In this document: piece after piece, positions 22,511 to 35,479 of the stretch
How positions within the stretch are numbered: the stretch's first letter is position 1
Layout: each line of letters begins with the position of its first letter
Assembly: GCA_016873165.1 (NCBI GenBank)
Contig: VGXV01000001.1
Location: 1-64,000 of the forward strand
DNA: 64,000 bases
DNA from: Planctomycetota bacterium
GTDB taxonomy: Bacteria > Planctomycetota > Brocadiia > Brocadiales > Brocadiaceae
Reading direction: 5' to 3'
Translations under genes and position numbers: made by a program
Notes under the pieces: generated by a model
Told to the model about the DNA's origin: nothing
The model's input: the letters and a program-made list of their open reading frames with translations, nothing else
The model's database searches: none

Positions 22511-23214
22511 CGAAAAACCACTCCCTCCCCCCCCATACCATGATCAAATAAAATTTCCTGGCAATTTATGCCCAACGGGTTCATAATTCACCCGTCATTC
22601 CTCTCCCTTCCTCCATCGCTCAATATTTCTCGCCCTTTCGTTTCATAAACATCGGGAGAAAACCTTAACCGTTATCCGTGACCGTTATCCGTGACCGTGA
22701 ACAACGCAACTACGGACACGGTTAACGATTACCTCCATCAGTGGATTAAGCGGAGCGAATCCACCATTCATGCGATAATCGTTGGTGGATACGGCGCAAA
22801 AACCAGCGCCTTTATCCACCCTACCCACACTACTTTTTACAAAACCAAATTACCTCTAAATTTGTAACACTTTAGTTTTTTGAAAAAGACTTCGATTTCC
22901 CTTATTTTATAATGCACCTCTAATATTGGCGCATGGAACAAATTTCACATCCATTAACTCCGCACTTTAGTGCGGAGATATCCACAATAAATACACCGGC
23001 TTTGGTAGAGACAGGTTTGAAACCTGTCTCTACAACCTGGTATAGTGAAAGATATCGGGCTAACTTTACATCAGGGCTAAAGCCCATGATTATTTCTTCC
23101 CTTAACCCCATGCTGAAGCATGGGGTTAAGACATAGACAGTTTTTCAAAAAACTAAAGTGTTACCTAAATTTCAAAAACCAGATTTGTTTGGCTCTGTAG
23201 TAAAAATCGTAAAA
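22511..23214. other. Repeat-rich gene-free stretch
   Basis: No plausible gene. From left to right it holds: a decayed copy of the palindromic element found in the CRISPR arrays (about 22668-22735, TTATCCGTGACCGTTATCCG...), a GTGGATTAAGCGGAGCGAAT repeat with its partner GTTGGTGGATACGGCG (22740-22830), and a complete MITE (22864-23164). Downstream of the MITE is a remnant (23172-23200) matching the right end of the element near 16245. Confidence 0.6.
22864..23164. mobile_element. MITE, 301 bp, 24-bp inverted ends, 8-bp target duplication
   Basis: The ends are perfect 24-bp inverted repeats beginning GTAACACTTTAGTTTTTTGA. Directly outside them CTAAATTT is repeated at 22856-22863 and 23165-23172, an 8-bp target duplication. 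Inside are smaller palindromes, including CTCCGCACTTTAGTGCGGAG, CCCATGCTGAAGCATGGG, and a REP-type hairpin GTAGAGACAGG...CCTGTCTCTAC at about 23006. No coding capacity, so it must have been moved by a transposase elsewhere. A related copy in opposite orientation is at 39132-39413. Confidence 0.85.
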
Positions 23215-23598: not shown

Positions 23599-23663
23599 CT
23601 CAATAATTCCTCGTTAACTCCCAAACTCCTAAACTCTAAAACTCAGAACTATACGGACACGGT

Positions 23664-23987
23664 TCACGGAAGCGCAATCCTCGTTCCCGTCCTCTTTATT
23701 TCTTCAGCAAGCGTTTCTCCGTTATCAAAATCTTCCGGCCTGAACGGTATCGGTTCGATTCTGTTGTCTATTTTTCTTCTCAGAGGAACAATCCGCCTTC
23801 GGTCATCAAACCTGTCGCCGGTAAAAGCAGGTGATACAAGCGCAACGTCAATATCACTCCATTCCTGGGCAGCACCCTTTGTATGTGACCCGAAAATTAT
23901 TGCATCTCGAATCGTAATGTGGTTCTTTTCCAGTTCCACTACATACCTTTTCACTATCTTTATAATTTCATTTGGAGTAGTAGCCAT
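23664..23987 (-). CDS. MNT-type nucleotidyltransferase domain protein
   Basis: A 107-residue minimal nucleotidyltransferase with the signature AIIFGSHTKGAAQEWSDIDV, giving the GSx10DxD catalytic triad, and a second acidic strand in NRIEPIPFRPEDF. Such MNT proteins pair with HEPN RNases as toxin-antitoxin modules, where MNT can AMPylate the HEPN toxin. Here the HEPN gene just upstream is cut short (24000-24119), so the antitoxin is orphaned. The MNT frame itself looks intact. Confidence 0.78.
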   Translation of the reverse strand: MATTPNEIIKIVKRYVVELEKNHITIRDAIIFGSHTKGAAQEWSDIDVALVSPAFTGDRFDDRRRIVPLRRKIDNRIEPIPFRPEDFDNGETLAEEIKRTGTRIALP

Positions 23988-24181: not shown

Positions 24182-24272
24182 CCGGGAACCATGTCCGTTA
24201 TCCGTGACCGTGAACAAACAATTCTCCGTCTTCCTACGGACACGCTCAACGGACACGCCTCACGGTTACCAC
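24182..24272. repeat. CRISPR-nested palindromic element, copy E1
   Basis: Leader-distal edge of array 1. Starts CCGGGAACCATGTCCGTTAT and ends CACGGTTACCAC, immediately followed by a half-repeat ATCCCTTATTCATCAGG. The left end is truncated relative to the other copies. The arms pair imperfectly: GTGTCCGTT and GTAACCGTG motifs on one side against AACGGACAC and CACGGTTAC on the other. Confidence 0.8.
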
Positions 24273-24656
24273 ATCCCTTATTCATCAGGTCAATTATTCC
24301 AACTGACACTGGCTTTATTCTTCTTATGGCCGCCATTTGAGTCGCAATCCCTTATTCATCAGGTCAATTATTCCAACGTTCTGGCAGGGTATTACTCTGA
24401 ATGTAGTTTATGTACGTCGCAATCCCTTATTCATCAGGTCAATTATTCCAACTCCCCTCCGGGAGGATACAAAGGAACGGGGTCGCCTGGTCGCAATCCC
24501 TTATTCATCAGGTCAATTATTCCAACAAATTCTTACAAAATTGGCAGGCAAATGTTATTAACGTCGCAATCCCTTATTCATCAGGTCAATTATTCCAACC
24601 TTCAAATGCTGTAAAATTGGGAACCATTACTGTGTCGCAATCCCTTATTCATCAGG

Positions 24657-24754
24657 GGAAGCCGTTGTCCGTGACCGTTATCCGTGTCCGTGAATGAATA
24701 ATTCTACACCTTTTTACGGTCACGCCAAACGGACACGTCGCACGATTTTTTCAC
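24657..24754. repeat. CRISPR-nested palindromic element, copy E2 (variant)
   Basis: 98 bp between a type-A half-repeat (left) and a type-B half-repeat (right). This copy and E7 form a second subtype, with CCGTGAATGAATAATTCTAC in the loop region and GCACGATTTTTTCAC at the right end. The different repeat types on its two sides mark a recombination junction. Confidence 0.85.
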
Positions 24755-24847
24755 ATCCCTTCTACATCAGGTCAATGATTTCCACAATTATCGGCCACTC
24801 AATGGGTGGATTGATCGCCCAAGTGTCTCAATCCCTTCTACATCAGG

Positions 24848-25171
24848 GGAAACCGGGAACCGTGTCCGTTATCCGTGACCGTGAACAAACAATTCTCCGT
24901 CTTTTTACGGACACGCTCAACGGACACGCCTCACGGTTACCACATCCCTTCTACATCAGGGGAAATCCGTGAACCGTGCCCGTTATCCGTGACCGTGAAC
25001 AACGCAATTCTCCGTCTTCCTACGGACACGCTCAACGGACACGTCTCACGGTTACCACATCCCTTATTCATCAGGGGAAACCGGGAACCGTGTCCGTTAT
25101 CCGTGACCGTGAACAAACAATTCTCCGTCTTCCTACGGACACGCTCAACGGACACGTCTCACGGTTACCAC
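24848..25171. repeat. Three tandem palindromic elements (E3-E5) separated by 17-bp half-repeats
   Basis: E3 24848-24943 (96 bp), E4 24961-25058 (98 bp) and E5 25076-25171 (96 bp) are joined by ATCCCTTCTACATCAGG (24944) and ATCCCTTATTCATCAGG (25059), with no spacer in between. Each begins GGAAA, contains GTTATCCGTGACCGTGAAC and TACGGACACGCTCAACGGAC, and ends ACGGTTACCAC. They occupy the leader-proximal end of array 1, where new spacers should be. Confidence 0.9.
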
Positions 25172-25202
25172 ATCCCTTATTCATCAGGTCAATGTTTCCT
25201 AC

Positions 25203-25563
25203 GGCACCCCTTTTAACCTATTCATGCACAACCACGTGCAAGGCCATTTCCTGTAACCTATCCAATCGGTAATCATTTCACCTCCAATCTTTTCTCAAAA
25301 TTCCAAAATAATACACGCAACTACAAACATGCACAAATCTTATGATTTTCCTGTAACCTCCCCCCTTTTTTGCCTCTTTTCTAAGCTCCGCTAACCTATT
25401 GAAATATAAATGCTTACCTACGCATTTGCCACATTTCTGTACTTTTCAATACTATCTTCTCATTTTTACACCTCTGTGGTCTCTGAGACCTCTGTGGTTG
25501 ATGTTTTCAGGCCGTGTTTTATTGTATTTTGTTCAGCCAATTTTGTCCATCTGAAAATAGGGA
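25203..25563 (-). promoter_or_regulatory. Leader region of CRISPR array 1
   Basis: Gene-free stretch between the last repeat and cas2. The first 60 bp (GCACCCCTTTTAACC... AAGGCCATTTCCTGT) closely match the sequence beside array 2 (28021-28080), so both are leaders. The array promoter should lie here and fire on the minus strand. The terminal repeat is degenerate (ends GTTTCCTAC). Confidence 0.7.
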
Positions 25564-25839
25564 TTACACGATATAGACATCCTCGTTTTTTGTCACTTTT
25601 CCCTGACCGATAACCCTGATAATCCCCTCACATTTTGCGCAGAGCGCATAGATACGCACACTATCCTCATCTGCGGAAATAATTTTGTTTATCCTGGCTA
25701 TCATTTTATCAAGAAGGTCGCCGTCCAGTATGCATTCAAATACACTGTATTGCACCCTGTCGCCAAAATCCTCCAGCGTCTTTGCCAGCCTGGTTCTCCG
25801 CTTCGTATCCGGTATATCATAAGAGACGAGATACAACAT
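25564..25839 (-). CDS. cas2: CRISPR-associated Cas2
   Basis: Cas2 is the dimeric bridge of the Cas1-Cas2 spacer integrase. The 91-residue protein has the ferredoxin-like start MLYLVSYDIPDTKRRTRLAK, with the conserved Asp, then FGDRVQYSVFECILDGDLLD and VRIYALCAKCEGIIRVIGQG. It is full length. The gene it normally follows, cas1, is reduced to a 3' fragment directly upstream, so spacer uptake by this locus alone is not possible. Confidence 0.95.
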   Translation of the reverse strand: MLYLVSYDIPDTKRRTRLAKTLEDFGDRVQYSVFECILDGDLLDKMIARINKIISADEDSVRIYALCAKCEGIIRVIGQGKVTKNEDVYIV

Positions 25840-25855: not shown

Positions 25856-25990
25856 TCAAAAGGGGACGTACGGACTGTCATCCTGAAGGGTTGCGGCAAG
25901 TTTTTCCGCCTGTAAACGAAAGCACTTCCTGTAGGTGGTTTTTTCCTTTATTTCCGGGTGAATAAACTCATTATTCAGCGCGCCTTGTTT
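25856..25990 (-). pseudogene. cas1: 3' remnant of cas1
   Basis: A 44-codon frame after a stop codon, ending 16 bp before cas2. It reads KQGALNNEFIHPEIKEKTTY, then RKCFRLQAEKLAATLQDDSP and YVPF. This matches the normal Cas1 C-terminus (tyrosine-Arg helix, then a final Y-x-P-F), in the position where cas1 should be. The catalytic Glu/His/Asp residues all lie in the missing part. The break point is at about 25991, next to a truncated rhuM gene, so a deletion or insertion joined the two. Confidence 0.75.
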
Positions 25991-26067
25991 TCAGGGCGAT
26001 AATTTCAGTTTCAAAGATTATCTCCGGATGGTTGTATGAAAATTGCCGTATTACCTGAAGACCGTTC

Positions 26068-26547
26068 TTAATCTTCCCGGATGAGGCCTTTTGCCTCATC
26101 AGAAACGCCTTTGAAATGAATGACATTGCCTAAAAGTTTCAATGTCTTCTGTAATTCCAGATACTTGTGCGCCGCAGATTTGAGCCGGTTTTCATTAATG
26201 GTGTATCCATCAACCAGATGTTTTCGCAAGACATTCGTTGCCCAGATACGGAATTGCGTTCCCTGCTTTGAATTAACTCTGTATCCAACGGATATGATGG
26301 CATCTAAATTGTAAAACAAAACCGGCTTGTCAGAATGAGCAAGGTGCATTTTTTGCACATTGCTTTTTTCTTCTAGCTCTTTTGATTCAAAGATATTGCG
26401 CAGGTGCTTGGTAATAACACTCCTTTCCGTGTCAAAGAGTTCCGCCATCTGCTTCTGGGTAAGCCAAACAGTTTCCTTCTCTAGTCTGACTTCCACGGTA
26501 TTTTTATAAACGATAACCTGTCCCTTTGATAGATTATCCGGGTTCAT
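26068..26547 (-). pseudogene. Truncated RhuM-family protein gene
   Basis: A 159-residue N-terminal part of a RhuM (virulence-associated, KilA-N/Bro-like) protein: VEVRLEKETVWLTQKQMAEL, FDTERSVITKHLRNIFESKE, VLFYNLDAIISVGYRVNSKQ and GTQFRIWATNVLRKHLVDGY. Members are normally about 330 residues; this one stops at KGLIRED. Its function in full form is unclear. A decayed CRISPR repeat (ATCTCAATCCCTTTGCAG) begins at its start codon, so it abuts the distal end of array 2. Confidence 0.7.
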
Positions 26548-26701
26548 ATCTCAATCCCTTTGCAGATTCAAACGCCAACTTACAGACTTCTAAATCTCTC
26601 ACGCGATTTATCCTTCTCGATTCTCATCCTTCGGCCCCCCTCCTTTCTCCCCCCTTGTCCATCTTCTTTCATCCTTCGTCTCTCGTCCCTTATGCATCAG
26701 G

Positions 26702-26799
26702 GGGAAACCGGGAACCGTGTCCGTTACCCGTGACCGTGAACAAACAATTCTCCGTCTTTTTACGGACACGCTCAACGGACACGCCTCACGGCCTCTCCC
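26702..26799. repeat. CRISPR-nested palindromic element, copy E6
   Basis: 98 bp, preceded by a decayed half-repeat (TCCCTTATGCATCAGG) and followed directly by a full repeat at 26800. Its right end differs from the array-1 copies: CACGGCCTCTCCC instead of CACGGTTACCAC. It marks the leader-distal end of array 2. Confidence 0.85.
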
Positions 26800-27035
26800 G
26801 TCTCAATCCCTTCTACATCAGGTCAATGATTTCCACTTTTTTGATCTTTAAATCCATTAAACTTTTTCAGGTCTCAATCCCTTCTACATCAGGTCAATGA
26901 TTTCCACGACGGCGAATAGCTTAGGTACGGATGGTAAGCTGTCGCAATCCCTTCTACATCAGGTCAATGATTACTACTCGAAAGCCAAACAAAACGCGAC
27001 GGAGCTTGTTCAGTCTCAATCCCTTCTACATCAGG

Positions 27036-27133
27036 GGAAACCGGGAATCGTGCCCGTTATCCGTGTCCGTGAATGAATAATTCTACACCTTTTTACGGTC
27101 ACGCCAAACGGACACGTCGCACGATTTTTTCAC
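27036..27133. repeat. CRISPR-nested palindromic element, copy E7 (variant)
   Basis: 98 bp of the E2 subtype (loop TGAATGAATAATTCTACACC, right end ACGATTTTTTCAC). Both flanks are type-B half-repeats, so here a single repeat appears split with the inner 17 bp (ATCCCTTCTACATCAGG) present on both sides. Confidence 0.88.
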
Positions 27134-27224
27134 ATCCCTTCTACATCAGGTCAATGATTACTACATGCCTGGCTGGAAAAAATAGTAGCCAAAGGTATCG
27201 AGTCTCAATCCCTTCTACATCAGG

Positions 27225-27321
27225 GGAAACCGGGAACCGTGACCGTTATCCGTGACCGTGAACAAACAATTCTCCGTCTTTTTACGGACACGCTCAACGG
27301 ACACGCCTCACGGCCTCTCCC
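27225..27321. repeat. CRISPR-nested palindromic element, copy E8
   Basis: 97 bp of the E6 type (right end CACGGCCTCTCCC). The left neighbour is a repeat cut after CATCAGG; the right neighbour is a complete repeat at 27322, so 23 bp rather than 17 bp are shared by the two sides. Confidence 0.88.
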
Positions 27322-28020
27322 GTCTCAATCCCTTCTACATCAGGTCAATGATTTCCACGGCAATAAAAAAGTTCATTCTTGGCATGCCGGAAAGTACCGG
27401 TGTCTCAATCCCTTCTACATCAGGTCAATGATTTCCACATTATTGAAGATAATGTGTCATGTAGTGATATTGTTACAGTCTCAATCCCTTCTACATCAGG
27501 TCAATGATTTCCACAAAGACAGCGGGTGCTACTCAATCTTAGTTTGCCCGGTCTCAATCCCTTCTACATCAGGTCAATGATTTCCACGTTTTTGATGAAA
27601 GTCAGATTAATCCAAAATGCGAAATTATGTCTCAATCCCTTCTACATCAGGTCAATGATTTCCACTACAATAACAGGCGACCTGCGTAAACTTACATCAG
27701 TCTCAATCCCTTCTACATCAGGTCAATGATTTCCACAAAGCTGCACCTACAAATAAAGATAGAGGAATTGTCTCAATCCCTTCTACATCAGGTCAATGAT
27801 TTCCACAAGAATCCGAAGAAATATGAAATTGATGGGAGACTGTCTCAATCCCTTCTACATCAGGTCAATGATTTCCACCAGCCAGTCTTTTATCCGATAC
27901 CTTGCCTGCTTTGTCTCAATCCCTTCTACATCAGGTCAATGATTTCCACATATATTTGTCGATTTTGAGATTTTCAATAACGGGTCTCAATCCCTTCTAC
28001 ATCAGGTCAATGATTTCCAC

Positions 28021-28352
28021 AGCACCCTTTGCAACCAGCCCATACACAAGCACTTACAAGGCCATTTCCTGTTATCCCATTTTTTAGGCATCAATTTTTA
28101 TTATCACCCCCTTAAAAACTTTAGAAAAAAAGTTGTATGATTTGAATCACAAGCCACTTACAATTTTCCGCGAACCGCCTTTTTTCTCTGTTCGCCCTAA
28201 CATATTACCGCATCATTTGTTACGTAGCATTTTACCCCTTTTGGGCACACATGATCACCACCTTCGCGCAATGTACGCAACCGCTCTCTTTATAGGTCAA
28301 CGATTTATCTCCTGGCAAACCTTTGTGCAATATATTCAAACTGCGATAGATT
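28021..28352 (-). promoter_or_regulatory. Leader region of CRISPR array 2
   Basis: Gene-free stretch between the newest repeat and the TIR-like gene. The 60 bp next to the repeat match the array 1 leader (GCACCC... CACAAGCACTTACAAGGCC, ATTTCCTGT). Further right is AT-rich sequence. It must hold the array promoter and probably the terminator of the cas operon. Confidence 0.7.
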
Positions 28353-29309
28353 CTAGTTTCTTTTTAGCACTTGTGGAATTTTTACTTTCAATTGTTCTTC
28401 AAGATCTTTGTAGTCTCTATAGAATATGGTTTCTGTACGAATTAAATCAGAAGGTAATTCTTCACCACACTCCATGATTATAATTGTTTTCTTCCCAAAA
28501 GCTAAAGACATACCAAGTTCTAACATTACATTTGGATTTGGTTGGCAATGTTTTTTAAATAATATTTTTATAAATATATTTTTGCAATCCCTCGAAAGAT
28601 CATAAATCCCAAACCTTGCAGATTGTATTTTTCTGCATATTTTGCAAAAGAAGTCGCCTCCTGGCATATCAAGGTCTGCATAATAAGGTTTGCATTCTTT
28701 ATCAAATACTAATATGGCATTATTTATATGAGGTCGCATTTTATCTTTCTTTTTCCTGGAAAAGCAATGCCCTATGAAAACAGAATTTTCCGGAATAACA
28801 TCTTCTGCACATGATGGATGTCCTGTAGGGCATTTATTTTTTAGTTTAAGTAAAATTGTTTTTAATATGGGGGGTTCCTCAAAACAACTAACAACATCTG
28901 ACAAAAGTTCAAATTTTCTTCCAGAAATACTCTCAATAGACTCATAAAAGAAATCTTTTATTTCGTCCAGTTGCTCTGAACCTTTAAGAACTGCTATTAT
29001 TTGTAATTGAATGTCATTAATGTCTTCTTTAAGAAGGCATTTTGTTAAAATCAAAAGACTTTCCCTATTATTTAACTCCTTTAAGAATTCTATAGCATAT
29101 TCTTTTAAAGATAATTCAAAGTTCTTCCAGGCATGCTCTATTTGATCTAAGCAGTCTTTTATGAGATTAAAGGCATGTGTTCGAAGGAATGGGCTTATAT
29201 CACCTTCCGGTGTATCAGGCAAAAAATGATACTCTTTTAAAAGAGAAATAATATCTTTTTCTCTTTTAAGACGATTTAGAGTTTCTACTTTCTCATCTTC
29301 CAGTGACAT
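28353..29309 (-). CDS. TIR/deoxyribosyltransferase-like effector candidate, last gene of the type III operon
   Basis: A 318-residue protein. Residues 1-170 are helical and charged, perhaps HEAT-like (YAIEFLKELNNRESLLILTK). Residues about 175-318 form a Rossmann-like domain of the TIR/nucleoside 2-deoxyribosyltransferase kind: SVFIGHCFS, a basic run, YYADLDMPGGDFFCKICRKI, FGIYDLSRDCKN, and PNVMLELGMSLAFGKKTIII with Glu264 at the usual catalytic position, then LPSDLIRTETIFYRDY. Proteins of this kind hydrolyse NAD or related nucleotides in defence. It starts 3 bp after the cas7 stop, so it is cotranscribed. No CARF or SAVED sensor domain is seen. Activity is inference. Confidence 0.65.
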   Translation of the reverse strand: MSLEDEKVETLNRLKREKDIISLLKEYHFLPDTPEGDISPFLRTHAFNLIKDCLDQIEHAWKNFELSLKEYAIEFLKELNNRESLLILTKCLLKEDINDIQLQIIAVLKGSEQLDEIKDFFYESIESISGRKFELLSDVVSCFEEPPILKTILLKLKNKCPTGHPSCAEDVIPENSVFIGHCFSRKKKDKMRPHINNAILVFDKECKPYYADLDMPGGDFFCKICRKIQSARFGIYDLSRDCKNIFIKILFKKHCQPNPNVMLELGMSLAFGKKTIIIMECGEELPSDLIRTETIFYRDYKDLEEQLKVKIPQVLKRN

Positions 29310-29312
29310 TTG

Positions 29313-30083
29313 TTATCCTTGTTTGATTTCATCCTTCTTAATATTAATTTCTACTTTTCCGCATCCTCTCGATTTAAACCCTCCGAGTAATTTAATAGCT
29401 TTCAATCTTTTTATAATAAATTCGTCTATGATTGTATCCGCATTCCAAGTTCCATTTTTAAGCCATGAATCATTAGCTCCTATTCCCAATTTTTCATCAA
29501 TAACTCTGGACTGGCCGAGTATCCACCCCTTAACAATATCTTTTTCTATAATCTCCAGTGTTCCTTTAAATTCGATACCATCTGCTATTATTTGAAAGTC
29601 TCTATTTGTTTTATCTGATACTACACCTGTTGCCCTATCTATTCTTACAGCATACATTTCTTCGGGCGTGGCATCGGCATAAAGATAAGGCACCCTGACA
29701 AATCCGACCAATCCTTGAGCACCAAGAAGATAACATGCAGGGCAGATACTTTCGGATCTATGTCTGGGATTAGGAGAATAAGAACACCCTCCGCCATCGA
29801 GAAATTTACCTTGTTCAATTAATTTTTTTTCATCAGATGAAAGTGTATTGTAAGCGCTAGGAATGCATGGTTTCATAGCAGAATTACCAGCAAATATGCT
29901 TATTAGATATTCCTCAATACTAGCTCTCAAAGCGCCTTTAAGACTCGAACCTTGTATAACAGCCCTTCCACCAACGGTTGTTATTGGATTATCAATACCG
30001 GACATAATATTTTGTTTGGCACCTATCCTGAAAGGTTCTTTTGTAACTAATGTAACGTTAAAAGCTCTGATTATTTTACTCAT
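29313..30083 (-). CDS. csm3: Csm3-like Cas7 backbone subunit
   Basis: The repeated backbone RAMP of a type III effector complex, which binds crRNA and cleaves target RNA every six bases. The 256-residue protein has IGAKQNIMSGIDNPI with Asp31 at the Csm3 cleavage position, VIQGSSLKGALRASIEEYL, the zinc-binding CPACYLLGAQGLVGFVRV, RIDRATGVVSDKTNRDFQI, and the C-terminal glycine loop LLGGFKSRGCGKVEI. All RNA-cleavage features look intact. It overlaps the preceding small-subunit gene by 8 bp. Confidence 0.9.
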   Translation of the reverse strand: MSKIIRAFNVTLVTKEPFRIGAKQNIMSGIDNPITTVGGRAVIQGSSLKGALRASIEEYLISIFAGNSAMKPCIPSAYNTLSSDEKKLIEQGKFLDGGGCSYSPNPRHRSESICPACYLLGAQGLVGFVRVPYLYADATPEEMYAVRIDRATGVVSDKTNRDFQIIADGIEFKGTLEIIEKDIVKGWILGQSRVIDEKLGIGANDSWLKNGTWNADTIIDEFIIKRLKAIKLLGGFKSRGCGKVEINIKKDEIKQG

Positions 30084-30459
30084 TTTTCTTCTCCTTTTTT
30101 AAAGACTCATCTATAATCGAATTTAGTTTTCCCAATATATAAGAGCAGATCATTACATCCAAATCGCTATTTCCCAGGGTATTTAAAATATCAAGCAAGG
30201 TTTCGTTTCTTACGATCTCCCATCTTGCGAATTCTTGTCTCTTGTCCCGCTTCTCAACCTTTCCCATTTGAAATGTTTTCGCGGTTTGATAGCCTTCTCT
30301 TTCCAATAATTGCCTTAAATTATCTAATTGATTGTTCGCAAACCATTGTTCTCGCCTATCTTTTTCTAATCGCTTTCGCTTCACGATTTCGACAATTTTT
30401 TGAATTGTGTTATTTATTAAGGTATCCCTTTCAAAAAGTGCTTTAGGTCCTTTCATCAT
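30076..30459 (-). CDS. Cas11-like small subunit of the type III complex
   Basis: A 127-residue, all-helical, charged protein with no catalytic motif (DNLRQLLEREGYQTAKTFQM, RQEFARWEIVRNETLLDILN, VMICSYILGKLNSIIDESLK). Size, composition and place between the Cas5-like and Cas7-like genes fit the Csm2/Cas11 small subunit, which binds the inner face of the complex. I cannot match it to a named family by sequence. It overlaps both neighbours (4 bp and 8 bp). Confidence 0.6.
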   Translation of the reverse strand: MMKGPKALFERDTLINNTIQKIVEIVKRKRLEKDRREQWFANNQLDNLRQLLEREGYQTAKTFQMGKVEKRDKRQEFARWEIVRNETLLDILNTLGNSDLDVMICSYILGKLNSIIDESLKKEKKNE

Positions 30460-31094
30460 TTATCCTCCTCGAGTAAAAATTCACAGCCTTCTATCACACT
30501 ACCTTCAAACAACGATTTAATATACTTTCCTGAAATTTTTGTAGTGGGCTCAAAAAGATAACCATAAACATATTTCTTTATACTTTTAATTCCAAAGTAT
30601 TCCATACAATTGGCCGTTTCCGGTATGCGAGACTGTAATGTCCCTAATTTGATTTCTGGATTTTCTATAATCTCAGTAAAATGAAGATGACACTTACCAA
30701 AACCTTTAGACTTAAATGCCCCCATTGTTATATCAAAATTCTGATTTTCTTTCTTTTCAATAAAATGTTCTGGCATCATGTCCTTTAGAAAAACATAAAC
30801 CAGTGCTTTAACGTCCGTAATAAATTCTATTTGCAACGGAACTTTAGAAACATCTTCAAAAACATATCTTGGGGAATAAATATGAATTTGTCTGTATTGA
30901 TCAATATTTTTTAGGTAATCCGAATCAAGCTTACCCAGTGCATAGATTCCTGGAAAGTTAAAAGTATCGCGCAAAGCACCAGTAATAGTAGAAAAGGGAA
31001 TAGTCTTAATACAAGGCTTATAAGTCCCTTTTTTAACTCTTTCTCCAATGCAAAGAATATCCGATGTCAGTTCATACTTAATATATTTTGACAT
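30456..31094 (-). CDS. Cas5-type RAMP protein (Csm4-like)
   Basis: A 212-residue RAMP. The two hallmark elements are present: a first-helix motif CIKTIPFSTITGALRDTF and a glycine-rich loop GAFKSKGFGKCHLHF. This protein would bind the crRNA 5' handle and cap the complex next to Cas10. It is shorter than most Csm4 (about 300), in line with a compact type III variant. It starts 8 bp after the cas10 stop. Confidence 0.7.
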   Translation of the reverse strand: MSKYIKYELTSDILCIGERVKKGTYKPCIKTIPFSTITGALRDTFNFPGIYALGKLDSDYLKNIDQYRQIHIYSPRYVFEDVSKVPLQIEFITDVKALVYVFLKDMMPEHFIEKKENQNFDITMGAFKSKGFGKCHLHFTEIIENPEIKLGTLQSRIPETANCMEYFGIKSIKKYVYGYLFEPTTKISGKYIKSLFEGSVIEGCEFLLEEDK

Positions 31095-31102
31095 ATCAAA
31101 CC

Positions 31103-32977
31103 TCAGTCCCGCATTATTTTGTAATAAGCTAAAGTTTCTTGAATTGATAATTCTCCAGTGGTAATTAAATGTTTTGCAAGCCCTCCTAATTCATTTTTCA
31201 TATCAAACATTGTTACTTTTACTAAAAATTGATTTTTTGTTTTCTCTTCGATCTCTGCAAGTTTGTGCAAGGCGGTACTAATCTTCTTATCTTCTATTCC
31301 GGCATCTCTAAGACATATATATTTGCCGAAGCTAATTTCCAATTTGGTATGCGGAACAGCATAGACATTTATTGCCTCTTTTGGATTATTCAAAACCTGC
31401 CAATGTTCCATAAAAGGATATTTAACATTGGAAATAGTCACTGAAAGCCTTATGGGTAAAATTGCCTTTTCTTTTTCTGTAAAACTTACAAATTTCGGGA
31501 AATAATCTTGGTATTTAAAAAGTTTTGTATATTCATTGAGCAGTGGCTTTATTTCACTATCATTCTTAATTTTTATACAGAACATATTTGGTAAAATGGA
31601 TTCGTGATTGTTTTCTCCATTGTAATCTTTATAACTAAAAACCCGTTCCCTAAAAGAATCCAAGAATTTATCATAATCGTATAAGAATTCTTTTATTATG
31701 GAAAATCCCAAATCCCCATCTAAAACATCTTTAAAATCAAATTCCTTTTTGAACATATTTTTGAGTAAACTCACCAATTCACCCATATTAAGGGTAATCT
31801 TAAAAAAGGCAACACTAACATCTTCTTCATCTTCCCATTTTGCTAATGTTTTGGCCTTATCAGCCTCTTCTCTTACCATTAGACACCCATCACATAAAAA
31901 CTCCTCCACAGGTTCGATTCCCATAACATCTGGATATCTCTCGCGCGGATATACCTTGCTTGCTGGTGCCATCTGACACATATCACATATAATAGCCCTA
32001 TGACTGGCTTCGTTATCTTCTCTTGGGATTATTTCTGTGTCTAGTTTTGGATATAAATTTTGCTGATATGGTCCAAAAAGACTATTATAAATATGGAGAA
32101 ATTCTTTGTTGCTCAAAAGTGTCTCCACAATGGTTGATTCAAAGTAATAATTTGTCCTTAGCCTCAAGACATCTTCAACTTTCCCTTTAATATCCTTGAC
32201 ATCATCTGGAATAGTAATGACTAAAATTTCTTCCGCCAATTCGTAAATAATAATTCCTTTTATTTTACCGGCGATTTCCTTCAATATTGTTGTAACGTCT
32301 TGAATAAGTTTCGTATCCCTTAGTCTCGATAACTTACCATGGGTAGTTAGTTTCAGGCGAACCATAGCGACCTTCTTTTTAGCAAACGAATTTACAACTT
32401 TTCTATATTCTTTAGATTCGTCCATCTTTTCTTGTATGCCAAGATAACTACAATTCCCCAAAAAGAAGGTATACCATAATGCCGTAAGCTCATTATGGGT
32501 ATGAAGGGAAGCGAAAGGACAATGGCCTGCATCCTCAGACCTGATTAAAAAGTCCTGTTCAAATCTTTTATAAAGCTCTTCAAGATTAGTTGATTTTTTA
32601 ACTTCCTCTATAACTCCGGGATACTGTGAAAGCGCGTCCTTCTCTTGCTTAAGGATATTATTATCTTTTATGATATCTCTCCAAATCCTGAATGTTTTGT
32701 AGGAACGATATTTAGAAGTACGGAGTTTTCTTGATATAGTGGCTGCCTTTACGTCAGCTAGATGAATGCACAACATTTCTTTATCTAAAGGAAATGGGTT
32801 GCATCCGCTCTTATGAGCACTTGTCCAATACCGACTGACGCAATGATGTTTAAGTGCCTTTTTAATGTCTGAATTTATTGAACTAAGTCCATCACAATAT
32901 TCAGGACAATAATGTATCTTACTATCTCCTGTTAACTTTAAGATGTCATGTAGTTTAGCTAATATGCTTCTGTCCAT
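31103..32977 (-). CDS. cas10: Cas10-like large subunit with HD motifs and no GGDD cyclase motif
   Basis: A 624-residue Cas10. N-terminal HD elements: LHDILKL (His10-Asp11), HHC (44-46), IHLADVKAA (His72, Asp75). Next is SLHTHNELTALWYTFF (157-172), typical of the HD/palm border. A palm-like stretch GIIIYELAEEILVITIP has LAEE (247-250) where a glycine-rich turn is expected. A zinc knuckle has CDMC (331-334) and CDGC (362-365). In the second palm, FFKITLNMGELVSLL and SILPNMFCIKI stand where DxDxLG and GGDD belong. The protein should not make cyclic oligoadenylate. Compact operons of this kind recall subtype III-F. Confidence 0.85.
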   Translation of the reverse strand: MDRSILAKLHDILKLTGDSKIHYCPEYCDGLSSINSDIKKALKHHCVSRYWTSAHKSGCNPFPLDKEMLCIHLADVKAATISRKLRTSKYRSYKTFRIWRDIIKDNNILKQEKDALSQYPGVIEEVKKSTNLEELYKRFEQDFLIRSEDAGHCPFASLHTHNELTALWYTFFLGNCSYLGIQEKMDESKEYRKVVNSFAKKKVAMVRLKLTTHGKLSRLRDTKLIQDVTTILKEIAGKIKGIIIYELAEEILVITIPDDVKDIKGKVEDVLRLRTNYYFESTIVETLLSNKEFLHIYNSLFGPYQQNLYPKLDTEIIPREDNEASHRAIICDMCQMAPASKVYPRERYPDVMGIEPVEEFLCDGCLMVREEADKAKTLAKWEDEEDVSVAFFKITLNMGELVSLLKNMFKKEFDFKDVLDGDLGFSIIKEFLYDYDKFLDSFRERVFSYKDYNGENNHESILPNMFCIKIKNDSEIKPLLNEYTKLFKYQDYFPKFVSFTEKEKAILPIRLSVTISNVKYPFMEHWQVLNNPKEAINVYAVPHTKLEISFGKYICLRDAGIEDKKISTALHKLAEIEEKTKNQFLVKVTMFDMKNELGGLAKHLITTGELSIQETLAYYKIMRD

Positions 32978-33010
32978 ACAAAATCCTTTGTAAGAATTGT
33001 TTTATACGTC

Positions 33011-33178
33011 TCACGAGAAAAATTTCTCCCTTATCCTCTTTGCCTTTTCCGGCATAGCTGTGTGAAAGAATTCCATCTGTGCTTCCAGCCACATGAGTTT
33101 TTCCCGCACAGGTTTTTTTTGATATTCTTCTATTTGCTCTTTTGTTTTGTAGTAAAGTAACGGCTGTTCAGCTTTCAT
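33011..33178 (-). CDS. Small partner protein of the nucleotidyltransferase
   Basis: A 55-residue protein, KAEQPLLYYKTKEQIEEYQK followed by KPVREKLMWLEAQMEFFHTA and MPEKAKRIREKFFS. The frame overlaps the end of the nucleotidyltransferase gene by 11 bp, and its stop is 33 bp before cas10. It is highly charged and helical. The genomic pairing suggests a toxin-antitoxin-like couple; which is which cannot be told. Confidence 0.55.
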   Translation of the reverse strand: MKAEQPLLYYKTKEQIEEYQKKPVREKLMWLEAQMEFFHTAMPEKAKRIREKFFS

Positions 33179-33671
33179 TATTCCATTCCTCCCGTATCTT
33201 CCTCAGGTAAAATACGTCTGCAATATCCTGGGGTCTGCCCGCTTTCTCTTTCATCTCAATGAGATATTGTATCGGCGCTACCGGAATGATCGTTTTTTCA
33301 GCATGGATTTCCTCCCTCGCTTCATAGACCACATCAAAATTGAAGGGCATTTCTACAAAAATATCGAGAAGGAAAAAGGGATTCTTAGGGTCAAAAAGGC
33401 TGAAAACCGTCATTCCTTTTTCTCTAATCCAGCTTTCTCTTGTTTCTTTTTTCATAAAGTCTTCAAGTCTTACTGGAATTTTTGGCTTGAAATTGAGTTC
33501 CTTCATGACTGCAATAAACCTGTTTAGGTTATTTTCTTCCAAATCCACAACGAGGTCAATATCTGCTGTGGCCCTTTCGATGCCATAGAGATTGACCGCT
33601 ATACCGCCAACTACCAAATAACGAACCTTGGCGTTATTCAGCGCAAAAAACAGACTTTCAAATTTGATCAA
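33168..33671 (-). CDS. AbiEii-like nucleotidyltransferase
   Basis: A 167-residue protein with the nucleotidyltransferase signature YLVVGGIAVNLYGIERATAD followed by IDLVVD (GG and DxD), then FLLDIFVEMP carrying the third acidic residue, and a helical C-terminus IQYLIEMKEKAGRPQDIADV. It resembles small stand-alone toxins or antitoxins of the AbiEii/DUF6036 group. It heads a run that continues through its small partner into cas10. Confidence 0.72.
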   Translation of the reverse strand: MIKFESLFFALNNAKVRYLVVGGIAVNLYGIERATADIDLVVDLEENNLNRFIAVMKELNFKPKIPVRLEDFMKKETRESWIREKGMTVFSLFDPKNPFFLLDIFVEMPFNFDVVYEAREEIHAEKTIIPVAPIQYLIEMKEKAGRPQDIADVFYLRKIREEWNNES

Positions 33672-34145
33672 AGCAAAACTCCTTTTTCTTTCACCCCTTT
33701 GGGGTTGATCCTATGTTACCTTCGCTTCCAGGGGCTTCACCCCTGGCTATATTCTTTCTGCCCTCCGGGCATTTTAAGGGAGCATTCCCGATTTTTTGTA
33801 AATAAAACAATTCTGCCGAATATGAAAAGTTCCTCATCTCACTGAGAAGCTCAACCCTTCGACGGAGTCTATCCTGAGCGGTAAATGATGAGTTACAAAA
33901 AACGGGAATGCTCCCCATTTTAACCACTTCCGCCGTGTCATTTGTGGTAAAAATAAGTGTACCGTATAGGATTTTTATTTTATTTAAGCGATTTCGAGTC
34001 CATAACCAATATGGCATGGTAAATAGTCTATGGAAAACCTCCCCTTCATCCCCTCCTTGCGAAGGAGGAACAAGGAAACCTTTTATCATTACCTCCCCTT
34101 TGTCCCCTCCTTGCGAAGGAGGGGATTGAGGGGTGGTTATAAGTT
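33672..34145. other. Repeat-rich stretch between the nucleotidyltransferase and cas6 genes
   Basis: No convincing gene. It holds a MITE (33778-33915), a GGGGCTTCACCCC hairpin near 33731, and two copies of a TCCCCTCCTTGCGAAGGAGG unit (34050 and 34107) also found, in variants, at 34569 and 38160. A 132-codon open frame here runs through the MITE and is not accepted. Confidence 0.5.
33778..33915. mobile_element. MITE, 138 bp, 8-bp target duplication
   Basis: Perfect terminal inverted repeats GGGAGCATTCCCG / CGGGAATGCTCCC, extended by a T-rich/A-rich pair (TTTTTTGTAA / TTACAAAAAA). CATTTTAA flanks both ends (33770-33777 and 33916-33923), an 8-bp target duplication. The interior includes a CAACCCTTCGACGGAGTC common repeat. 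No coding capacity. Confidence 0.85.
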
Positions 34146-35246
34146 CTATAAAATTTCATACTTCCCCAACCCAAACGACGTCCCCTTCCCCACGTGGACG
34201 TACTCGCCCAGCCGTAATAACGTTATGAAATCCGATATATCGCCTTCATAAGTAACAGCGCCGGTGACACCTCCAAGGGACATCCACTGCTCCTGTCTTG
34301 TTGAATACCGATTCCAGTCATACCACTTGATGTCCGACTCTGTTTGCTTTACCAGTTTTGCCTTTTCAATGAGACCTTTAAAGTCTGCCTGAAACCTTTC
34401 GTCACAATGAAAATACGATAAAGAAGAAATACGTCTTAAAAGATTTCTGACAAGGATATGGAATTCGATCTTATCGGTTATGTGACCGTCAAAACGAAGT
34501 CTTAAAGGGGTAACCAGTGAAATGGTTATTTTGTTATCAGGGTTATTTCCCTGAGGAGTGTCTTTTTGCAGCATGTTTTTAACCCCTCCTTTGTCCTCCC
34601 CTTCATAAAGGGCGGAAATGGCAGCAGAGGAGTGAATACCGTTTGTTGTGCCTTTCCCACCACAAGTTTTTTCTTCGTGCCCTTCGTGTGCTTCGTGGTT
34701 AAAATCTTTTCGGTTACAGCCTTGCTGCGTTATGATGGGATAGTGGTTGGCGAGGGTTTGTGTTTTATTGTCGTAAACTTGTATAGCTTCATTTCCCAAA
34801 CTAATTCCCTCAACCTGCAACAGGTCGTATTTCCCCCTCCCCTGCCCGATTCCCTGTTTTCCCAGTTCGGTAAAGGTATAGATAAAATACGGCAAATACT
34901 CTATTGCCCTGCCAATGAGAATAAGGCTGAAGGAGAATGATTCGCCGGGAGAATAAAGGAGCTTTTCGTCTGCCGGGGGTTCTATGACAAAAGGATGGGG
35001 AACTTTCGGGTAGAGGCGAAGTATTTCGGCATCTTCCGGGGGAGGGGTTTCAAAGATGTATGCGTAGATGCATTTTTGCTTCAGCATGCAGGTATCGCAT
35101 GGTTTTCCCCTTACCACACAGACGACTTTTTTGAAGGCATATCCGAACCCGCCGCGGAATACCGCTCCCTTATATGCAGGGAAGCGTATATGGTCTTTTG
35201 CACACACGGTGAATCTGAATTTTGCCAAACGAAATGAGAAGGGCAT
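34146..35246 (-). CDS. cas6: CRISPR pre-crRNA endoribonuclease Cas6
   Basis: Cas6 cuts pre-crRNA within each repeat. The C-terminal RAMP signature is unmistakable: SLGGVTGAVTYEGDISDFIT then LLRLGEYVHVGKGTSFGLGK. The N-terminus has IRFPAYKGAVFRGGFGYAFK and a CxxC-type pair in CDTCMLKQKC. I prefer the start at 35246 (MPFSFRLAKFRF); the frame is open to 35348. Residues about 170-225 are an in-frame insertion with HEAHEGHEE and SALYEGEDKGG, translated from non-coding repeats. The core looks intact either side, so the enzyme may still work. Confidence 0.88.
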   Translation of the reverse strand: MPFSFRLAKFRFTVCAKDHIRFPAYKGAVFRGGFGYAFKKVVCVVRGKPCDTCMLKQKCIYAYIFETPPPEDAEILRLYPKVPHPFVIEPPADEKLLYSPGESFSFSLILIGRAIEYLPYFIYTFTELGKQGIGQGRGKYDLLQVEGISLGNEAIQVYDNKTQTLANHYPIITQQGCNRKDFNHEAHEGHEEKTCGGKGTTNGIHSSAAISALYEGEDKGGVKNMLQKDTPQGNNPDNKITISLVTPLRLRFDGHITDKIEFHILVRNLLRRISSLSYFHCDERFQADFKGLIEKAKLVKQTESDIKWYDWNRYSTRQEQWMSLGGVTGAVTYEGDISDFITLLRLGEYVHVGKGTSFGLGKYEIL

Positions 35247-35479
35247 TAAAATTTCCAAAACTGAAAAGTCTTTTGAGAAATAAACACCACCCTCCTGATA
35301 CCTCCCCAGGCGAATCAACACTATAGAGCGAATAATATTGAAAATCAACAGGAAAATATGTTCGGTTTGAATGGTTCGGAAAGAGAAGGTCTTCTTGTTT
35401 TATCACACAAAAATTCCGGGACACAGAGGGATGATTCGTAATATACAGACAATACAACTCAAGTCCGATACGGATAAAC

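What the first reader, a model, noticed from the sequence alone, without database searches (positions are those of the whole stretch)
24634..24785. Repeat type switches from A to B across one element: recombination between arrays
Left of element E2 the repeats are type A (CTTATTCATC, CAATTATTCC). Right of it they are type B (CTTCTACATC, CAATGATTTCC), the repeat of array 2. E2 and E7 are the same subtype, and E7 sits in array 2. A crossover between identical elements would join the two arrays exactly here. From 25059 the repeats return to type A across E4/E5. So the elements act as homology patches that shuffle spacer blocks between arrays.
Basis: seen in the sequence. Interest (0 to 1): 0.65.

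Follow-up and report, generated by a model that had tools for sequence, protein, structure and literature searches.

The report
Hairpin mobile elements inside CRISPR repeats

Summary
Array 1 has A repeats up to 24656, element E2 at 24657-24754, then B repeats from 24755; A returns at 25059 inside the E3-E4-E5 tandem. E2 and E7 (array 2) share a 106-bp identical tract that includes the B copy, but their left ends differ, so E2 looks like a mosaic. That fits recombination through elements. It is not proven: relatives mix A and B with no element at the switch, no sister strain is held, and the mosaic test is weak (p=0.11).

The larger result is what the elements are. In relatives the same kind of arms, at the same point of the CRISPR repeat (after CATCAGG, with 17-25 bp of repeat on both sides), enclose an S23 / 23S_rRNA_IVP gene, the protein of ribosomal-RNA intervening sequences. 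Full S23 genes lie inside or against such repeats in eight genomes of the family and in a Syntrophaceae MAG of another phylum. Their tree needs at least five separate origins. In the window only short hairpin derivatives (E1-E8) and one S23 remnant (26557-26693) remain. The duplicated part covers the repeat's central mini-hairpin, so neighbouring spacers probably keep a processable repeat. That functional step, and how the elements move, are inferred.

The parts
24182..24272 (+). E1, hairpin element at the leader-distal end of array 1; its left repeat copy is missing
   Evidence: 97% identity to E3 over 91 bp; followed by an A-type repeat copy at 24273
24273..24656 (-). Array 1, A-type repeats and spacers, ending in the truncated A copy 24634-24656
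   Evidence: the minus strand is taken as the crRNA strand because the leaders lie on the right
24657..24754 (+). E2, element at the A-to-B switch
   Evidence: left copy A, right copy B; 106-bp identical tract with E7; weak hairpin, z=-1.4
24755..24847 (-). B-type block: right copy of E2 plus tail, one spacer, B head 24825-24847
24848..24943 (+). E3, hairpin element, B on both sides
   Evidence: RNA fold -47.8 kcal/mol, z=-5.95
24961..25058 (+). E4, hairpin element, B on the left, A on the right
   Evidence: right half identical to E5 (0/46), left half 7/52 different
25076..25171 (+). E5, hairpin element, A on both sides, next to the leader-proximal repeat
   Evidence: left half identical to E3 (0/50)
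25172..25254 (-). Leader-proximal repeat of array 1 and start of its leader
   Evidence: 80% identical to 27990-28072 at the end of array 2
25564..25839 (-). cas2
   Evidence: Pfam PF09827 1.7e-25
25859..26081 (-). cas1 remnant (internal deletion and frame breaks); intact cas1 and an RT lie here in G020
   Evidence: tblastn of G020 Cas1, residues 290-329 and 109-144 only; G020 cas2-cas1-RT
26557..26693 (-). S23-element remnant: N-terminal S23 fragment and one arm, touching the distal repeat copy of array 2
   Evidence: 77% identical to the G010 S23 element, 2e-24; tblastn 2e-7
26685..28020 (-). Array 2, B-type repeats
26702..26799 (+). E6, hairpin element; right repeat copy starts at the repeat border (23-bp duplication)
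27036..27133 (+). E7, hairpin element, B on both sides, same right part as E2
   Evidence: z=-2.1
27225..27321 (+). E8, hairpin element, B on both sides, 23-bp duplication
   Evidence: z=-5.3

Best explanation
E1-E8 are short, gene-less derivatives of S23 elements: mobile units with hairpin-forming arms around a gene for the S23 / 23S_rRNA_IVP four-helix-bundle protein, the protein of 23S rRNA intervening sequences. Several S23 lineages have independently entered the same point of this CRISPR repeat family (after CATCAGG), leaving 17-25 bp of the repeat on both sides; internal deletion then left hairpins of about 100 bp [shown: structure, position, S23 gene in relatives, shared arms; inferred: mobility and order of events]. 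The duplicated part carries the repeat's central mini-hairpin and, in the 23-25 bp cases, the whole crRNA 5'-handle end, so Cas6 should still cut on both sides and the insert leaves as a dead spacer, much as RNase III removes intervening sequences from pre-23S rRNA [inferred]. The copies and the repeat pieces beside them then act as homology: elements become tandem (E3-E4-E5; four copies in G022) and mosaic (E2, E4, E7), and the A-to-B switch at E2 and the return at E4 are most simply the two edges of a B-type block brought in by exchange inside elements [mosaics shown, direction and partner inferred].
For: Same insertion point with different arm families in many genomes. S23 genes inside or touching repeat copies, Pfam 5.6e-35 to 2.7e-21 in the family and 1.6e-27 in a Syntrophaceae MAG. 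In G011, G022 and the Syntrophaceae MAG an S23-bearing copy sits next to short copies with the same ends. The G009 S23 element in a CRISPR repeat has the window's right arm, 94% over 33 bp. S23 remnant beside array 2 of the window. About 0.03 S23 genes expected in arrays by chance in the family, against three fully enclosed in repeat copies (G001, G009, G011), one more in G022, and others at array edges. S23 tree: nine CRISPR-located rows need at least five origins. Mosaic pattern of E2/E7 and E4/E5/E3.
Against: No full S23 element with these arms is in the assembly. Non-CRISPR S23 loci show no clear flanking duplication, so the duplication may not be made by the element's own insertion. Left and right copies differ in type in several inserts (E2, E4, own C5, G029), which a plain target duplication does not predict. 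The site-order test for recombination is not significant (p=0.11). The E2 hairpin itself is weak (z=-1.4).
Confidence: 0.62

Rival explanations
1. The A/B switch is ordinary repeat-repeat recombination or array mixing and only happens to fall on E2; the elements are passengers.
For: A and B alternate at plain spacers in G027/L148 and G001, and once in the own C5 array. Spacer loss through recombination between repeats is a known process (general knowledge; a review on array dynamics was listed but not read).
Against: In the window both switches lie on elements (2 of 6 against 0 of 19, p=0.05), and the right half of the element follows the right repeat type.
Confidence: 0.28
2. No target duplication: the element replaced the last 14 bases of one repeat plus the next spacer, so its two flanks are two neighbouring repeats that could differ in type from the start.
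For: Left and right copies differ in E2, E4, own C5 and G029; S23 loci outside CRISPR have no flanking duplication.
Against: In many inserts the right copy lacks the first 5-6 bases of the repeat; tandem elements are separated only by the 17-25 bp core.
Confidence: 0.25
3. The spacer-integration machinery (Cas1-Cas2, with the RT found at this locus in relatives) inserted the structured S23 RNA or its cDNA into the repeat.
For: In G011, G022, E6 and E8 the duplication starts exactly at the repeat border, a normal Cas1 site; RT genes lie near the arrays in G003, G006, G008, G011, G014, G020. A published survey lists 23S rRNA IVP among new associations of CRISPR adaptation modules (PMC10910872, Fig. 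6 legend).
Against: Normal integration copies the whole 37-bp repeat; here only 17-25 bp. Inserts are about 100-600 bp. They occur in G001 and G029, where no RT was found, and in G004, G007, G009, G010, G022, which have none close to the array.
Confidence: 0.15
4. Plain REP/BIME-type palindromes with no link to S23.
For: Short, palindromic, tandem, no gene in the window copies.
Against: Relatives carry S23 genes between the same kind of arms at the same site; the family does not occur elsewhere in the own genome as full copies.
Confidence: 0.06

Closest known systems
23S rRNA intervening sequences (IVS) with S23 gene, as in Coxiella and Leptospira (PMC4990558)
   Same: Hairpin-forming ends, optional S23 gene, recurrent fixed insertion points inside a processed RNA, loss of the gene in some copies
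   Different: Sits in CRISPR repeats, not rRNA; repeat sequence duplicated at both sides; removal would be by Cas6, not shown
MITEs (non-autonomous derivatives of transposons)
   Same: Short, inverted ends, no gene, larger relatives with the same ends next to them
   Different: No transposase known; duplication of 17-25 bp is long; tied to one repeat site
CRISPR-linked 23S rRNA IVP noted in a large survey (PMC10910872, Fig. 6)
   Same: Same protein family close to CRISPR loci
   Different: There listed among associations of adaptation modules; here the gene is a passenger of elements lodged inside the repeats (whether these are the same loci was not checked)
DGR accessory protein Avd
   Same: Related four-helix bundle; some CRISPR-located S23 proteins have weak bAvd hits (6.5e-4, 9.8e-4)
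   Different: No RT or template repeat in the element

Membership tests
23S rRNA intervening sequence (IVS) | Inserted in an rRNA gene | tested here: not met
   Located in CRISPR repeats
23S rRNA intervening sequence (IVS) | Complementary ends forming a stem-loop | tested here: met
   E3 and E8 z=-5.9 and -5.3; E7 -2.1; E2 only -1.4
23S rRNA intervening sequence (IVS) | S23 / PF05635 gene between the ends (in some members) | tested here: met
   In relatives, 9.6e-23 to 5.6e-35 for copies enclosed in repeats; window has short derivatives and one remnant
23S rRNA intervening sequence (IVS) | Cut out of the transcript by RNase III | not testable with these tools
   needs RNA data
MITE | Inverted ends, no gene, shares ends with a larger element | tested here: met
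   G011, G022, Syntrophaceae pairs; window right arm shared with the G009 S23 element
MITE | Short target duplication made by a transposase | tested here: inconclusive
   17-25 bp repeat copies on both sides, types differ in some; none seen at non-CRISPR S23 loci
Cas1-Cas2 acquired spacer | Whole repeat duplicated, spacer of ordinary length | tested here: not met
   Left copy lacks 14 bases; insert 96-104 bp
CRISPR type III-F effector locus (neighbouring genes) | Cas10f, Cas5f, Cas11f, Cas7f genes together | tested here: met
   PADLOC models 2.5e-47, 4.8e-47, 3.1e-10, 3.2e-53; which effector uses these arrays is not known
REP/BIME with RAYT | Mobilised by a RAYT (Y1) transposase | not tested
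   -

The most novel reading that the evidence does not exclude
S23 elements are a class of mobile elements for which a CRISPR repeat is a recurrent, position-exact insertion site, in at least two phyla. They are tolerated because the copied part of the repeat lets Cas6 trim them away like a spacer, the CRISPR counterpart of rRNA intervening sequences; once there, they drive exchange of spacer blocks between arrays.
Probability: 0.35. Interest if true: 0.82.

Novelty: new variant of a known kind. Interest (0 to 1): 0.62.

Why it matters
Intervening sequences with S23 genes are known from rRNA, where how they move has remained open. Finding the same protein gene in elements at a second, equally exact site, the CRISPR repeat, gives a repeated natural experiment on their target choice and a site where insertion can be tested without touching the ribosome. 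It also offers a concrete explanation for the reported link between 23S rRNA IVP genes and CRISPR loci (PMC10910872): at least here the gene is a passenger of elements lodged inside repeats. For CRISPR biology it shows a source of homology inside arrays that can move spacer blocks, in a locus whose own cas1 is broken.

Tried and rejected
Dispersed transposon in the own genome: rejected, all eight full copies lie in the two arrays, with further short pieces at 22656-22735 and 23652 nearby. Rfam: no hit in the window. Aberrant Cas1-Cas2 spacer: length and repeat copy do not fit. RT near the array as a requirement: inserts also occur where no RT was found. Target duplication at S23 loci outside CRISPR: none above background except quasi-repeats of the arms. 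Viral contigs: no hit to the insert pattern. Genome scan hits L145-L147 are ordinary arrays with irregular spacing. A site-order recombination test was not significant. 36 of 107 S23 loci have arms with inverted-repeat z>=4 by a strict local score; the rest have degenerate arms that this score does not catch.

Full report
Observation. The window holds two CRISPR arrays, read on the minus strand with leaders on the right (25203 onward and 28021 onward, 80% alike). Array 1 has A repeats (GTCGCAATCCCTTATTCATCAGGTCAATTATTCCAAC), array 2 has B repeats (GTCTCAATCCCTTCTACATCAGGTCAATGATTTCCAC). Eight hairpin elements sit in them at one point, directly after CATCAGG. Each complete element is followed by a second copy of the repeat starting at ATCCC (17 bp) or at the repeat border GTCTC (23 bp; E6, E8).

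Is the switch due to exchange between elements? E2 and E7 differ at 7 positions, all in the first 20 columns, then are identical for 106 bases through the right repeat copy and 9 bases more; their next spacers differ. E4 and E5 have identical right halves (and the A copy after them) but differ in 7 of 52 columns on the left; E3 and E5 have identical left halves but differ in 3 of 46 columns on the right. These are mosaic patterns. Type changes lie on 2 of 6 scorable elements and 0 of 19 plain steps in this genome (p=0.05). A permutation test on site order gives p=0.11. Relatives mix A and B with no element at the switch (G027/L148, G001), and the own C5 array has one plain switch. In the sister species G020 the orthologous array (same leader and cas2, 69-71% DNA identity) is all B and free of inserts. 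I judge exchange through elements likely but unproven.

What the elements are. Full copies occur only in these two arrays in the own assembly. In 33 genomes of the same family, 19 carry exact copies of the 17-bp repeat core, and at the same point of the repeat there are inserts with other arm texts: GGCCC..GATAAAG (G011, G022), CCATTCTC..CACTGG (own C5, G001, G006, G008, G027), CAATG..TTCATT (G003, G004, G007, G029), TCGTCCC (G010, own array 2 edge), ACCGTG (window, G009). In 12 of 26 array pieces at least one repeat is interrupted, and arm-like text abuts the leader-distal end in about 16-18 of 26 (the arm classes were read from these same sequences, two assignments are doubtful).

The S23 link. 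Between such arms and repeat copies lie genes of PF05635, 23S_rRNA_IVP: G009 (5.6e-35), G011 (6.1e-29) and G001 (9.6e-23) fully enclosed by repeat copies; G004 (9.9e-22) enclosed on one side by an exact and on the other by a degenerate copy; G010 and G007 at the distal edge; a relic array in G003; and, in another phylum, a Syntrophaceae MAG (JACAEX010000048.1, 1.6e-27). In G022 an S23 element is followed by four tandem gene-less copies, and in G011 and the Syntrophaceae MAG by one, with the same ends, all at the same repeat position. The G009 element has the window's right arm (94% over 33 bp). In the window itself 26557-26693 is an S23 remnant touching the distal repeat copy of array 2. PF05635 is found in all 33 genomes, 246 hits, 0 of 14 control genomes; chance would put about 0.03 of them in arrays (rough estimate of 15 kb of arrays in 119 Mb).

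Independent arrivals. A tree of 112 S23 domains needs at least five changes for nine CRISPR-located rows; they are also more clustered than shuffled labels (0 of 500). Groups: G011+G022 (with G001 near), G004+G003 relic, G007+G010, G009, Syntrophaceae. The alignment is short (132 columns) and some branches are long, so the exact number is soft. So the site looks like a recurrent target, not one old insertion passed on.

Mechanism. Shown: hairpin folding of the elements in the crRNA sense (E3 z=-5.95, E8 -5.3, E7 -2.1, E2 -1.4); the repeat RNA is predicted to fold a mini-hairpin CCU..AGG that lies wholly in the duplicated part, and the insertion point is at its 5' base. Inferred: Cas6 can still cut beside each spacer, so the insert is removed from the transcript as a dead spacer. 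This is what RNase III does for intervening sequences in 23S rRNA (PMC4990558). How the element inserts is open: S23 loci outside CRISPR show no flanking duplication; the own genome has a DGR with Avd and RT at contig C59, relatives have an RT beside cas1-cas2, but genomes with inserts and no detectable RT exist (G001, G029).

State of the locus. cas2 is intact, cas1 survives only as two pieces (residues 290-329 and 109-144 of the G020 protein) and the RT is gone. The only Cas1 in the assembly is on contig C36. New spacers for these arrays would need it. The neighbouring effector genes are type III-F by PADLOC models.

Relation to the literature. Held papers describe S23 genes inside rRNA, and a resemblance of PF05635 to DGR Avd (PMC4990558; PMC10053308). 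One survey lists 23S rRNA IVP among associations of CRISPR adaptation modules (PMC10910872, Fig. 6 legend). None of those found describes S23 elements inside CRISPR repeats. The library is open-access only, so this is not proof of novelty.

Names. L148 matches G027 and is a Planctomycetota groundwater MAG; the 4.4-Mb single-contig sister species fits an anammox Kuenenia, so the window is probably from the anammox family Brocadiaceae (inference).

Noticed in passing
window 25859-26081 (-): cas1 is a broken remnant next to intact cas2; intact cas1 plus RT occupy this place in sister species G020.
   Followed up: yes
window 28353-35348 (-): Type III-F effector genes (Cas10f, Cas5f, Cas11f, Cas7f), a TIR-domain protein (PF10137, 5e-7) beside them, and a Cas6-like gene.
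   Followed up: partly
window 22656-22735 and 23652-23669: Two further pieces of the same palindromic family left of array 1; the first is preceded by CATCGGGAGAAAACC, resembling a repeat copy plus element end.
   Followed up: no
window 26068-26547 (-): RhuM-family gene wedged between the cas1 remnant and the S23 remnant.
   Followed up: no
G000 contig C59, L209 4-2421: A diversity-generating retroelement: FGE-sulfatase target gene, Avd (NF033474, 1.8e-25) and reverse transcriptase.
   Followed up: partly
L189 4634-7975 (G020): cas2-cas1-RT adaptation module beside the orthologous array, with Csm-type effector genes further on.
   Followed up: partly
L027 and L029: Arms of the same palindrome text sit inside coding sequence of repeat-containing surface-protein-like genes in G031 and G006.
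   Followed up: no
L065 904-1046 (G011): One spacer occurs twice in a row, a sign of recent duplication through repeats.
   Followed up: no
L124-L135: S23 genes elsewhere in the own and sister genome are flanked by locus-specific, text-like short-period arms (such as GACCTCTGACCTCTG or GCTGATGGCTGATAGC) pointing in opposite directions.
   Followed up: partly
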